In this document: piece after piece, positions 1,172 to 63,262 of the stretch | Layout: every line of letters starts with the position of its first letter | Numbering within the stretch: the first letter of the stretch is position 1 | Source of the DNA: Comamonadaceae bacterium CG12_big_fil_rev_8_21_14_0_65_59_15 | GTDB taxonomy: Bacteria; Pseudomonadota; Gammaproteobacteria; Burkholderiales; Burkholderiaceae_C | Assembly: GCA_002786915.1 (NCBI GenBank) | Contig: PCUV01000049.1 | Location: 155,601 to 219,600 of the forward strand | Length of the DNA stretch: 64,000 nt | Direction: 5' to 3' | The notes under the pieces: model-generated | What the model was told of the DNA's origin: nothing | The model's input: only the letters and a program-made list of their open reading frames with translations | Database searches by the model: none | Translations under genes and position numbers: made by a program

Positions 1172-1494
1172 TTTTGGTACAAATTTTTACAATGAAATCA
1201 ACGACTTAGGAACGATTTTGGAGGTATTTTTAAGCCAAAAATCGTTCTAAATGAAGCACTTAGAGAGTGCTCTGAAAGTGATGGTTGAAGATTTTTGGTG
1301 GCAACAGCTCAACGCCTGCCCCGACAGAAAACCTCGACCCACGGCAGGGTGCCCGGGTCAGGCGCTGGCAGTTTTTGGGCTAAAAAAGGCTCTAACCCTT
1401 GTTATTAAAGCGCAAGACGCTATCAAAAGAGGTGCGAATTTCAGCTATTTGACCGGACAAATTCCAACTGCATCGTCCGGCCAATACAGCCCGT
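1172..1494. other. Intergenic remnant containing a copy of the AT-rich dispersed repeat
   Basis: I see no gene here. Positions ~1385-1487 match ~2464-2583 in direct orientation, through the shared stretches TATTAAAGCGCAA, GCTATCAAAA, TTCAGCTATTTG and CCAATACAGCC. This pair of direct repeats flanks the toxin-antitoxin module at 1589-2297. The first part of each repeat belongs to the AT-rich element that recurs throughout the window. Confidence 0.6.
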
Positions 1495-1570
1495 GCCTAT
1501 CTCAACGCGAGCGTTTCAACGGTACAGAAATGGGAAAACGGCGATAAAAAGCCCAGTGGGGCGGCGCTGC
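1495..1570 (+). pseudogene. Fragment of a HigA-like antitoxin gene
   Basis: These ~76 bases translate as AYLNASVSTVQKWENGDKKP followed by SGAAL. They are almost identical in DNA to positions 3066-3141 inside the intact antitoxin gene at 2884-3186. The fragment holds only the recognition helix and turn of the helix-turn-helix domain, has no start codon, and runs into unrelated sequence after AAL. It directly follows the direct repeat at 1385-1487, so it is a leftover of a duplication or recombination within this toxin-antitoxin patch. Confidence 0.75.
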
Positions 1571-1588
1571 TTTCCGAACCCGCTACAG

Positions 1589-2887: not shown

Positions 2888-3186
2888 TGAGCCGAATGAT
2901 CAGTGAATCGTTGGAGACGATGCGCGACCTCGAGCAAATCGGTGTCGTCAGCAAGCAGACCCTGCGTGATTTTGAAGCACAGGCTGTGCCGCCACCCACT
3001 TATACGGCTGAAGCAATCCGGCGCTTGCGCGAGCACTTTCATGTTAGTCAATCCGTATTTGCGGCCTATCTCAACGCCAGCGTTTCAACCGTACAGAAAT
3101 GGGAAAACGGCGATAAAAAGCCCAGTGGGGCGGCGCTGCGTTTGCTTTCGATCATCGAGCGGCGCGGGTTGGAAGTCTTGGTCTGA
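2884..3186 (+). CDS. HigA-like antitoxin, orphaned by toxin decay
   Basis: A 100-aa protein starting MMSRMISESLETMRDLEQIG with an Xre-type helix-turn-helix (VSQSVFAAYLNASVSTVQKW). A good ribosome binding site, GGAGG, lies about 7 nt before the ATG inside the end of the broken toxin gene. The open reading frame is intact although the toxin is deleted, so it may persist as an autoregulator or as an anti-addiction factor against related toxins. The identical core in the fragment at 1495-1570 indicates a recent partial duplication. Confidence 0.85.
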   Translation: MMSRMISESLETMRDLEQIGVVSKQTLRDFEAQAVPPPTYTAEAIRRLREHFHVSQSVFAAYLNASVSTVQKWENGDKKPSGAALRLLSIIERRGLEVLV

Positions 3187-16181: not shown

Positions 16182-16279
16182 AATCAGTTGAGGACAGAGC
16201 AACTCTTGATCTGCCCCGCATTTTTAATCAGTTGGGGACAGAGCAAGCTCGCTGCGCGTAGCCTTGGTCTGTCCCGCAA
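16182..16279. repeat. Tandem pair of GGGACAGA hairpin repeats
   Basis: AATCAGTTGAGGACAGAGC starts at 16182 and AATCAGTTGGGGACAGAGC at 16226. The second copy is complete and ends GGTCTGTCCCGC, pairing GGGACAGA with TCTGTCCC. A third copy lies between sucD and sucC (35509-35562). All are in gaps within leftward-transcribed gene strings. Confidence 0.75.
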
Positions 16280-16283
16280 AATC

Positions 16284-16598
16284 TCAGTAGGTAATCGCCA
16301 TGGCCGGCACATCGACACGAATCATCGGCTTGCCCAACGCCGCGCTGACAGCGGCCACGTACTCGGACGACCATTTGGCGTCGCCCAGCAACTTGGCACC
16401 GGCCGCTTGCGTGACCACCAGAATCTTGTCGGCAGTGAGCACCTTGCCGCTGGCGCGCAGGGGCTCGCACTCGAGGGTGGTGAATTGCTGGTCCAGCCAG
16501 GCACGGGCTGCGTCGTGCGCCAGCGGTGCCGTTCCGGCCGGAACGTGGAAGGTGAATTCAACACCCTTGTCCAACATCACACTGATTTGCTTTTGCAT
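16284..16598 (-). CDS. Conserved small protein of unknown function
   Basis: A 104-aa soluble protein, MQKQISVMLDKGVEFTFHVP, with alternating hydrophobic positions and a central helix (AHDAARAWLDQQFTTLE), but no motif or membrane segment that I can name. It lies in the string dapF-DUF484-xerC on the same strand, 33 nt downstream of xerC. The reading frame has normal codon use and an ATG start. A copy of a GGGACAGA repeat separates it from rlmI. Confidence 0.7.
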   Translation of the reverse strand: MQKQISVMLDKGVEFTFHVPAGTAPLAHDAARAWLDQQFTTLECEPLRASGKVLTADKILVVTQAAGAKLLGDAKWSSEYVAAVSAALGKPMIRVDVPAMAITY

Positions 16599-21836: not shown

Positions 21837-21912
21837 GCGCAGCGGCTGCCTTGGGCGGTCTCCTCATACTGGAGTACCAGAAATCGTCAACCGCCCAAGC
21901 CAGCCACTGCGC
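21837..21912. repeat. Conserved-loop hairpin repeat, copy A
   Basis: Arms 21837-21859 and 21890-21912 pair at 21 of 23 positions (GCGCAGCGGCTGCCTTGGGC with its complement). The loop contains CATACTGGAGTACCAGAAAT, the core shared with copies B (22028-22103) and C (63185-63262). The stem sequence is unlike those of the other copies. Confidence 0.85.
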
Positions 21913-21965
21913 TAGACGCTACAAATAAAAAAGCAGCAGTCGCCCTCAAATCGAGGGCTGTGGGG
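21905..21965. other. AT-rich repeat-like tract in a gap without genes
   Basis: The 480-bp gap 21760-22239 has no gene. Next to hairpin copy A it holds GCGCTAGACGCTACAAATAA, a partial copy of the AT-rich dispersed repeat. Hairpin copy B and a CCGG-palindrome repeat fill most of the remainder. Confidence 0.45.
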
Positions 21966-22027
21966 CAAATCGGGCCATCCCAACGGGTTGCCTTCTGACT
22001 CAAACACCGCCCGCCTACCCACACATC

Positions 22028-22103
22028 GCGTGGTAACCGGTGGCGGCGAACACCGATTTCTGGTACTCCAGCATGAGGGGTTCGCTGCTACCGGTTGCCG
22101 CGC
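22028..22103. repeat. Conserved-loop hairpin repeat, copy B (inverted)
   Basis: Arms 22028-22054 and 22077-22103 pair over 27 positions with five differences, several of them G-U compatible. The 22-nt loop, read on the minus strand, is identical to that of copy C and includes CATGCTGGAGTACCAGAAAT. Confidence 0.85.
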
Positions 22104-23798: not shown

Positions 23799-23858
23799 AC
23801 ATAAAAAACACGGTCCTGCCCTGATAGCATCTGTACAAGGTGCTATCAAAATAAAAGT

Positions 23859-24214
23859 GTGAAGCCCACCGATAAGCCGGATTCTGTGCATTGAGGTTGC
23901 CCTCAATGTGACTGCCATTCATCTGGGCTGTGGGTCACCCCACAGCTCGGTGCTACCTACCCGCACACTCCGGGGGCCCCATCAACGTGTGCCTATTTGG
24001 TATTGCTGCGCGTAGAGATTGCCCGTTTCACCCGCACCGGGTTGCCCCAGCGCGACTCGTCTCTGTTGCTCTGATCCTCACCTTATAGCCCCGCACTTGC
24101 GTGCGCGGCCTTTCAGTGGACAGCCGTTAGCTGCTACGCTGCCCTATGCAGTCCGGACGTTCCTCCAGTGCCTGGTTTCCCAGCTTGCACCAGCGGCAGT
24201 CTGGCGGGCTTCAC
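23859..24214 (-). ncRNA. rnpB: RNase P RNA, bacterial type A
   Basis: The minus strand shows GAGGAACGTCCGGACTGCAT near the 5' end and ends with the 3' strand GGTGGGCTTCAC, which pairs with the 5' GTGAAGCCCGCC to close helix P1. Other recognisable RNase P stretches include GGAAACCAGGCACTGG and CAGAATCCGGCTTATCGG. The RNA is the catalytic subunit that removes tRNA 5' leaders. A GATAAT -10 box lies at 24223-24228. The long plus-strand ORF over it is spurious. Confidence 0.96.
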
Positions 24215-35498: not shown

Positions 35499-35508
35499 TT
35501 TTGATCCT

Positions 35509-35562
35509 AATCAGTTGAGGACAGAGCTGGCTCGTTGCACGTAGCTGCGGTCTGTCCCGCAA
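35509..35562. repeat. GGGACAGA hairpin repeat between sucC and sucD
   Basis: AATCAGTTGAGGACAGAGC at the left and GGTCTGTCCCGC at the right match the repeat at 16226-16279. It fills the gap between sucC and sucD, so it is transcribed in the operon mRNA and forms a stem there. Confidence 0.8.
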
Positions 35563-35571
35563 GGTTTCACA

Positions 35572-53685: not shown

Positions 53686-54894
53686 ATGCCCTGCGCCCAC
53701 ACCATCAGCGCACAAAACTATCACTTCAATAGCTTGAAAGATCTGCTGGCCAGGGCCAACCCGCTGCGCTCGGGCGACCAGTTGGCGGGCGTGGCGGCGG
53801 CCGATGAGCAAGCTGTGCCGCCCGCAAGACCTGGTGCTGATCGCGCGCAATTGCCGGGTGGTCACACGCTTTCGCAGCACCATCGGCCTGCCCGGCCACC
53901 TGGCCACGCGCTTGCAGCCCAACCACCCCACAGACGACGCGCAAGGCATTGCCGCCAGCCTGCTTAACGGCTTGCTGCTGGGCAGTGGCGATGCGGTCAT
54001 CGGCATCAACCCGGCCAGCGCCAACACCGCGCAGGTGGTGCGGCGGCTGCACTTGCTGGATGAATTGATTGGCCATTACGCCATTACCACTTAGAGCTGT
54101 GTGCTCACGCACGTGACCCACACGCTACAGGCGATCGGACGCGGCGCGCCAGTGGATTTGGTGTTCCAGTCCATCGGCGGCACCGAGGCCACCAATACCA
54201 GCTTGCTGGCGCTGCTGCAAGAGGCGCGCGAGGCGGCCCTGTTGCTGCATCGCGCCAAGCTGTTGGACAAGTCTGGCCAGCGCAGCGCCAACGTGATGTA
54301 TTTCGAAACCGGCCAAGGCAGCGCGCTGTCTGCCAACGCGCATCACGACTGCGACCAGCAAACCATTGAGGCGCGCGCCTACGCCGTGGCGCGGCATTTC
54401 AAACCCTTGCTGGTCAACACCGTGGTTGGCTTCATCGGGCCAGAGTATTTGTTCAACCTGGATTCCTCAGTTGGACGCGCCCGAGTGGGCTGCTGGCGGC
54501 GTGTCCGGGTAGGCGCGACAACGCTGCAGGCTCATGCCCGCGAGGCGGAGCAACGACCCCGGGCGCGTTGCCAGTGGCTCAATCGGGTGCGTAGCGCTGT
54601 CACCCAAAAGGTGAACAGTGTCGAAGCTGAAATAGTCAATGTTCATCAGGAGTTATCGAAGAAATCAAGCGGTCAACTGAGGAATCCAGGTTCAACGGTA
54701 AGCAGATCACCCGTGCCGGTCTGGAAGACCACTTTTGCGGCAAGCTGCTGGGCCTGCGCGCCGCGCCCGAGTTTGAAGCCTGGCAGCAAGCCCTGGGCAT
54801 CACCACGGCGGGCGACGGACCGCGGTTGGCCGACCACGTGCCCGCTGCTTTTGTGCCGACGCTGCGAGATTTGCGAGATGGCCAAGGCACTTGA
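53686..54894 (+). pseudogene. eutB: Ethanolamine ammonia-lyase large subunit, heavily decayed
   Basis: Segments of EutB are recognisable in order: NYHFNSLKDLLARANPLRSG and DQLAGVAAADEQ; then RSTIGLPGHLATRLQPNHPT, SGDAVIGINP; CVLTHVTHTLQAIGRGAP, MYFETGQGSALSAN, LLVNTVVGFIGPEYLFN; and ITRAGLEDHFCGKLLGLRAA. Damage: ~100 codons missing after residue ~40 with a frame change; an amber TAG at 54092 in place of the expected Gln; a 234-bp inverted-repeat insertion at 54457; ~60 codons missing after FCGKL, including the substrate and cobalamin region. The adenosylcobalamin enzyme cannot be made. Confidence 0.9.
54457..54690. mobile_element. 234-bp MITE-like element inserted in eutB (IS1380-like ends)
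   Basis: The ends CCTGGATTCCTCAGTTG and its exact complement CAACTGAGGAATCCAGG are 17-bp perfect terminal inverted repeats. They are flanked by direct repeats TTCAA at 54452-54456 and 54691-54695. Removing the element plus one TTCAA restores GPEYLFNGKQITRAGLEDHF, matching EutB. It holds no transposase. The CCTGGATTC start and 5-bp duplication resemble IS1380-family ends such as ISEcp1. Confidence 0.88.
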
Positions 54895-63184: not shown

Positions 63185-63262
63185 CGCGCGGTAGCCGGTA
63201 TGGGCAGCCCCCTCATGCTGGAGTACCAGAAATCGGGGGTTGCCCATACCGACTACCACGCG
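63185..63262. repeat. Conserved-loop hairpin repeat, copy C
   Basis: Arms 63185-63212 and 63235-63262 pair over 28 positions with three differences, all compatible with G-U pairs in RNA. The 22-nt loop includes CATGCTGGAGTACCAGAAAT and is identical to copy B. The stem sequence is unrelated to copies A and B. It lies between the MoxR and GNAT genes. Confidence 0.87.

What the first reader, a model, noticed from the sequence alone, without database searches (positions are those of the whole stretch)
21837..22103. Hairpin family with an invariant loop and freely varying, self-complementary stems
Three copies (21837-21912, 22028-22103 inverted, 63185-63262) share an almost identical ~22-nt loop containing CATGCTGGAGTACCAGAAAT (one base differs in copy A; B and C are identical). 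Their 23-28-bp stems have unrelated sequences, yet each pairs almost perfectly with itself. The loop also contains CTGG-AGTA-CCAG, a small apical hairpin. Conserved loop plus covarying stem argues for selection on a folded single strand (RNA or ssDNA), for example a protein-binding RNA hairpin or a structure-recognised recombination site. I know of no name for it.
Basis: seen in the sequence. Interest (0 to 1): 0.8.

Follow-up and report, generated by a model that had tools for sequence, protein, structure and literature searches.

The report
Dispersed hairpins, fixed tip, interchangeable stems
Bacteria of one family (Comamonadaceae and close kin) carry up to about 60 copies per genome of a DNA hairpin whose tip is nearly unchanging while its 26-29 bp stem can have almost any sequence as long as it pairs with itself, which means something in the cell recognises the folded single strand; it has no name that I could find.

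Summary
The window's genome (Rhodoferax-like) has 46 copies; 38 of 251 sampled genomes of its family carry them; none was found outside that family, in viral contigs or in plasmids. Across 43 mutually dissimilar stems, 94% of pair cells are paired and all 27 stem pairs change on both sides (0/500 shuffles). The apical mini-helix covaries too; what is invariant is a 5x5 internal loop, GATTT/YATGA. Copies occur as inverted pairs of unlike hairpins (91 with functional strands diverging, 0 converging), in intergenic DNA, rarely between divergent promoters. In one Polaromonas the whole unit is dispersed in about 28 copies; in Limnohabitans the hairpin lies inside RAYT-type inverted tags. Best reading: a non-autonomous REPIN/MITE-like element with a structure-recognised, strand-specific single-stranded DNA hairpin, partner protein unknown. 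An RNA reading is not excluded.

The parts
21837..21912 (-). Hairpin A; the strand under folding selection is the minus strand (5'-stem-CGATTTCTGGTACTCCAGTATGAG-stem-3'); left member of a pair
   Evidence: fold z -6.3; CM hit window:21830-21919 93.3 bits; strand
21920..22020 (.). Spacer between the two hairpins of the pair; compared between pairs of this genome, spacers are mostly not alike
22028..22103 (+). Hairpin B; strand under folding selection is plus; right member of the pair with A (functional strands diverge)
   Evidence: fold z -5.3; CM hit window:22021-22110 86.2 bits
63185..63262 (-). Hairpin C; single copy between two co-directional genes; functional strand is minus, antisense to both genes
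   Evidence: fold z -8.1; CM hit window:63179-63268 95.6 bits; gene context

Best explanation
A family of non-autonomous, mobile intergenic DNA elements. Each hairpin is a structure-recognised site: a 26-29 bp stem that must pair but need not have a given sequence, topped by an invariant internal loop (5'-GATTT / 5'-YATGA, i.e. C-G, tandem G.A/A.G, T.T, T-A, T.Y) and a short apical helix. One strand only (GATTT...YATGA) is the one recognised when single-stranded. The basic unit is two unlike hairpins in inverted orientation with the functional strands pointing outwards, comparable to a REPIN or BIME; it spreads in trans by a transposase or recombinase not identified here, and survives mainly downstream of genes because insertions into genes and promoters are removed. 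SHOWN: the fold, its covariation, the strand, the pair geometry, intergenic placement, dispersal of a whole unit in one genome, nesting in RAYT-type tags in Limnohabitans. INFERRED: that the single strand is DNA, that a protein binds the internal loop, that this serves mobility.
For: Covariation 27/27 stem pairs. Strand asymmetry A.C 320 vs G.T 39 on the quoted strand, opposite to the flanks, and equal for elements sense or antisense to neighbouring genes (90:5 and 91:6 G.U:A.C on the functional strand), so it does not depend on local mRNA. Functional strand the more stable in 272 of 289 (RNA parameters) and 250 of 289 (DNA parameters). 91 diverging pairs, 0 converging; partner stems never 80% alike. 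Few in divergent intergenic regions: 9/157 vs 106/282 without elements. Polaromonas G129: about 28 dispersed copies of a 240-264 bp unit, 76-95% alike, with a conserved spacer. 31 elements enclosed by inverted GGGGTCAGATCAACATTAATTT, the tag class that flanks RAYT genes.
Against: No partner gene found: none within about 1.5 kb of Y1 transposases in 30 loci, and some carriers (e.g. G172, G165) have no Y1 match listed. No target duplication or clean empty site shown. Retention at the same locus in different species fits a host function at least as well. G.T tolerance and tandem G.A/U.U are at least as natural for RNA. No replication-strand bias, although lagging-strand exposure is the usual route for ssDNA transposons.
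Confidence: 0.45

Rival explanations
1. The hairpin is an RNA: the GATTT...YATGA strand is transcribed (3' UTR, antisense or read-through RNA) and a protein binds the internal loop, as in other tandem-G.A internal-loop motifs, to set RNA 3' ends, stability or termination.
For: About 7% G.U and many G.A/G.G mismatches on one strand, typical of structural RNA; the internal loop reads as tandem G.A plus U.U; elements lie 40-70 nt from stop codons and are enriched between convergent genes; retained at orthologous loci.
Against: Strand constraint is the same whether the element is sense or antisense to its neighbours; pairs point in both directions; no conserved promoter-like or T-run flank in the logo; canonical terminators equally frequent in intergenic regions with and without elements; no Rfam match at gathering score or convincing weaker one.
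Confidence: 0.25
2. A host-maintained chromosomal DNA site: the extruded hairpin is bound by a housekeeping protein (nucleoid, replication-restart or repair factor), and dispersal is incidental.
For: Same position kept across species while stems turn over; no copies in 2.9 million viral contigs with either pattern nor, for one 42-nt query, in plasmids; compensatory and wobble changes continue at orthologous loci.
Against: Patchy: 38 of 251 family genomes, 29 of 141 genera, 0 to about 60 copies; several near-complete genomes of the same genus have none; no replication-strand bias.
Confidence: 0.2
3. Neutral quasi-palindrome correction: template switching copies one arm onto the other, so arms stay complementary without selection, and the tip is constant by chance or recent copying.
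For: The tip is found flipped relative to its surroundings in Limnohabitans units, so arm-arm exchange does happen; many changes affect both arms.
Against: Does not predict the 8:1 A.C:G.T and 7:1 pyrimidine:purine mispair bias on one strand, nor an invariant internal loop between genera whose stems share nothing.
Confidence: 0.07
4. An integron-attC-like recombination site whose bottom strand is recombined by a tyrosine recombinase.
For: Strand-specific folded site, stem sequence free.
Against: attC sites have conserved ends and variable tips, the reverse of this; no arrays of cassettes, copies are scattered pairs in inverted orientation.
Confidence: 0.03

Closest known systems
REP / BIME / REPIN elements and their RAYT (TnpA-REP) transposases (PMC3116915, PMC2817692, PMC8266576)
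   Same: Intergenic palindromic repeats, inverted pairs with a spacer, many copies, patchy between relatives; in Limnohabitans the hairpin is physically inside RAYT-type GGGGTCAGA tags.
   Different: REPs are described as 20-40 bp palindromes, most with a constant tag at one end (PMC3733652); here the hairpin is about 76 nt, the tip is constant and the stem free, partners of a pair are unlike, and outside Limnohabitans no RAYT tag encloses them.
IS200/IS605 family ends (subterminal structures recognised by the transposase on single-stranded DNA; PMC6006769)
   Same: Strand-specific hairpin recognition.
   Different: Both ends of such an IS lie on one strand (own knowledge); here the two functional strands are opposite. 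No transposase within the units; no gene shared by loci with hairpins 300-4500 bp apart.
Integron attC sites (own knowledge)
   Same: Folded single strand recognised by structure, with free stem sequence.
   Different: Constant ends and variable loop in attC; constant tip here.
Beta-proteobacterial repeat element BRE (PMC3110155)
   Same: About 90 bp, intergenic, reported in Polaromonas and Rhodoferax.
   Different: Found there by sequence identity (>70%), i.e. sequence conserved. Not compared letter for letter here.

Membership tests
REP/REPIN (RAYT-mobilised) | Intergenic, multi-copy palindromic hairpins, often as inverted pairs | tested here: met
REP/REPIN (RAYT-mobilised) | Conserved tag at the foot of the stem, shared with the flanks of a RAYT gene | tested here: not met
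   Met for 31 of 297 elements only; the others show no such enclosing tags; no conserved foot motif over all
REP/REPIN (RAYT-mobilised) | RAYT gene in the same genome | tested here: inconclusive
   PF01797 in 188 of 251 family genomes and most element carriers, but no match listed for some carriers such as G172 and G165; also present in genomes without elements
IS200/IS605 end or derived MITE | Both hairpins on the same strand | tested here: not met
   91 of 98 neighbouring pairs are diverging, with opposite functional strands; only 7 are same-direction
attC site | Conserved boxes at stem ends, variable apical loop, arrays with cassettes | tested here: not met
   tip constant, stem ends variable; scattered, no arrays
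Intrinsic terminator | Hairpin followed by T-run, on the mRNA strand | tested here: not met
   no T-run in flank logo; constraint independent of gene strand
Known Rfam RNA family | Covariance-model match at gathering score | tested here: not met
   only RNase P in the window; weak chance-level hits only in four loci
Mobile element in general | Dispersed, closely similar copies of a whole unit | tested here: met
   Polaromonas G129, about 28 copies of a 240-264 bp unit
Mobile element in general | Empty site / target duplication | tested here: inconclusive
   flanks of Polaromonas copies continue as mosaic repeats, no clean duplication; its genus holds one genome only

The most novel reading that the evidence does not exclude
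A new class of chromosomal site recognised through a single-stranded internal-loop code (GATTT/YATGA), where the stem is an interchangeable handle, selection acts on one strand of the DNA itself irrespective of transcription, and two unlike hairpins of opposite polarity form the working unit, served by a protein family not yet known.
Probability: 0.3. Interest if true: 0.9.

Novelty: new variant of a known kind. Interest (0 to 1): 0.74.

Why it matters
Repeats are normally found by sequence identity; this family would be split into dozens of unrelated repeats by such methods and is visible only by its tip and its pairing. It gives a natural library of hundreds of compensated stems around one constant internal loop, so the binding partner and the RNA-or-DNA question can be tested directly with a labelled oligonucleotide. 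If the partner is a transposase, it adds a recognition mode (tip read-out, free stem, opposite strands) unlike REP, IS200/IS605 or attC.

Tried and rejected
Y1 transposase neighbourhood: no model hit in 30 loci of about 1.7-3.4 kb. RAYT as general partner: the RAYT gene is bracketed by its own GGGGTCAGA tags, which enclose only 31 of 297 elements. Autonomous version: ORFs between diverging hairpins 300-4500 bp apart are ordinary and not shared. Terminator role: canonical terminators no rarer where elements occur. Replication-strand bias by local GC skew: none (noisy proxy). Phage or plasmid carriage: none found. Literature: tip sequences not found in relevant papers; broader searches gave only REP/REPIN work, BRE and a motif survey in which Rhodoferax ferrireducens had the most significant spaced motif pairs, 140 (PMC5217627), possibly partly this element; its supplement could not be read. 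A family scan of RAYT translations failed on frame and was not repeated.

Full report
OBSERVATION. The three copies are at the stated places (expected by chance 0.00 with up to 3 mismatches) and fold far better than shuffled sequence. One correction: the stems of B and C are relatives (81% complementary over 88 nt as inverted arms).

A GENOME-WIDE FAMILY. Twelve exact CTGGAGTACCAG words in the own genome all lie in such hairpins. A covariance model from 14 copies (R1) finds 46 places in the genome. Among 61 genomes (own and relatives), 28 carry it, all of the same genus, and none of 24 from other families of the order. A sample of the whole family gives 38 of 251 genomes, 29 of 141 genera (conservative, few candidates scored per genome). 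A second, more general model (R2) finds nothing outside the family in samples of the order (300 genomes) and class (274) (the same caveat). Named carriers are Rhodoferax, Polaromonas, Limnohabitans, Curvibacter and unclassified Comamonadaceae; one contig labelled Singulisphaera also turned up and is probably a binning error. Copy numbers: Polaromonas G129 62, own genome 46, Rhodoferax G013 34 and G005 31, Limnohabitans-like G145 26. No match in 2.9 million viral contigs or, for one query, in plasmids.

ANATOMY. In functional orientation: a 26-29 bp stem; C-G closing pair; internal loop GATTT / YATGA; apical helix of 3-4 bp that covaries (CTGG/CCAG, CGGG/CCCG, GTGG/CCAC, CTGC/GCAG, GTGC/GCAC) with a variable loop, mostly TACY. 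In 43 stems chosen to be mutually less than 62% alike, 94.4% of cells are standard pairs, all 27 stem pairs have changes on both sides, covariation score 0.909 against 0.188 +/- 0.012 in shuffles and at most 0.178 in slid registers. These stems were chosen partly for pairing, but of 215 distinct tip matches found by the tip alone, 181 had at least 17 of 25 positions paired.

WHICH STRAND. The flanks just outside the stem show the reverse bias (G.T more common than A.C), so composition does not explain it; and the detection rule in that call favoured G.T on the quoted strand. Read on the complement these are G.T(U) wobbles and G.A/G.G, i.e. the complement is the strand selected to fold. It is the more stable strand in 272 of 289 elements with RNA parameters and 250 of 289 with DNA parameters.

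NOT A NEIGHBOUR'S mRNA. The bias is the same in every transcription context: tandem antisense 91:6, tandem sense 90:5, convergent pairs 56:8, convergent singles 27:3 (G.U:A.C; here the detection rule slightly favours G.U). An element selected as part of the neighbouring gene's transcript should show it only in the sense orientation. This favours a DNA-level single strand; it does not exclude independent transcription of the elements.

ARRANGEMENT. Adjacent copies are inverted, with functional strands diverging: 91 diverging, 0 converging, 7 same-direction; the partners' stems are never 80% identical; spacer 24-193 nt. Regions with elements are convergent 41, tandem 107, divergent 9, against 21, 155 and 106 for intergenic regions of at least 100 bp without elements in the same loci (home-made gene finder). 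Tandem singles are antisense 37, sense 18, as if the member nearer the downstream promoter is lost more often (inference).

MOBILITY AND PERSISTENCE. In Polaromonas G129 a 240-264 bp unit, hairpin-spacer-hairpin, is dispersed in about 28 copies at 76-95% identity with fixed hairpin spacing; outer flanks continue as mosaics. In the own genome, stems fall into a few families while spacers look mostly unlike. In Limnohabitans-type genomes 31 elements sit flush within inverted GGGGTCAGATCAACATTAATTT arms, in both orientations of the tip; the same GGGGTCAGA tag brackets the RAYT gene in G145, G248, G129 and G000. Elements are also retained at orthologous loci: with flanks 82-91% identical, stems may be only 30-50% identical and still pair; one-sided changes are WC-GU 260 against WC-AC 48 (pairs of sequences not independent, and detection slightly favours GU). 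So pairing stays under selection after insertion, or stems are replaced wholesale.

INTERPRETATION. Most likely a non-autonomous REPIN/MITE-like element built on a strand-specific, structure-recognised hairpin, read as single-stranded DNA, with an unknown partner. The step from 'folded single strand' to 'DNA' rests and on the mobile context; the step to 'protein' is inference from the invariant internal loop. An RNA role and a host DNA site remain open. Nothing matching was found in Rfam or the open-access literature.

Noticed in passing
window 16225-16286 and 35508-35569: 62-bp repeat (82% alike) with inverted GGGGACAGA ... TCTGTCCC ends, resembling the tag class of RAYT-associated repeats.
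   Followed up: no
window 1381, 2468, 15904, 50854: 48-nt repeat family containing GCGCAAGCAGCTATNAAAA; possibly the published BRE or the ATAGCT(N)22CAAAAG motif of Polaromonas naphthalenivorans (PMC3110155, PMC5217627).
   Followed up: no
window 54451-54478 and 54669-54696: 28-nt inverted repeat, 89% complementary, 190 bp apart (GTTCAACCTGGATTCCTCAGTTGGACGC): a possible separate palindromic element.
   Followed up: no
window 1377-1573, 2464-2582, 3064-3142: Duplications (119 nt at 85%, 79 nt at 96%) near the start of the window.
   Followed up: no
window 23857-24212, minus strand: RNase P RNA, bacterial class A (203 bits), 1.7 kb from the hairpin pair.
   Followed up: no
L070 2999, L075 3024, L076 2962, L077 3058, L089 2787: Subtype with about 22 extra nt (CGAAGTTTCGGCGAAGCC-like, itself a small hairpin) inserted next to the AAATCG side of the tip.
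   Followed up: partly
L282 2597-3457 (also L283, L284, L285): RAYT-type Y1 gene bracketed by inverted GGGGTCAGA tags in several genera; tag extensions differ between genera.
   Followed up: partly
L236 2381-2644 and other G129 (Polaromonas) units: Spacer is itself palindromic (GTAGCGCGCTACCGGTA ... TACCGGTAGCGCGCTAC) and occurs in both orientations relative to the two stem types.
   Followed up: partly
L193 (CALPYQ020000011.1, labelled Singulisphaera): A contig labelled as a planctomycete carries a Limnohabitans-type unit; likely mis-binned.
   Followed up: no
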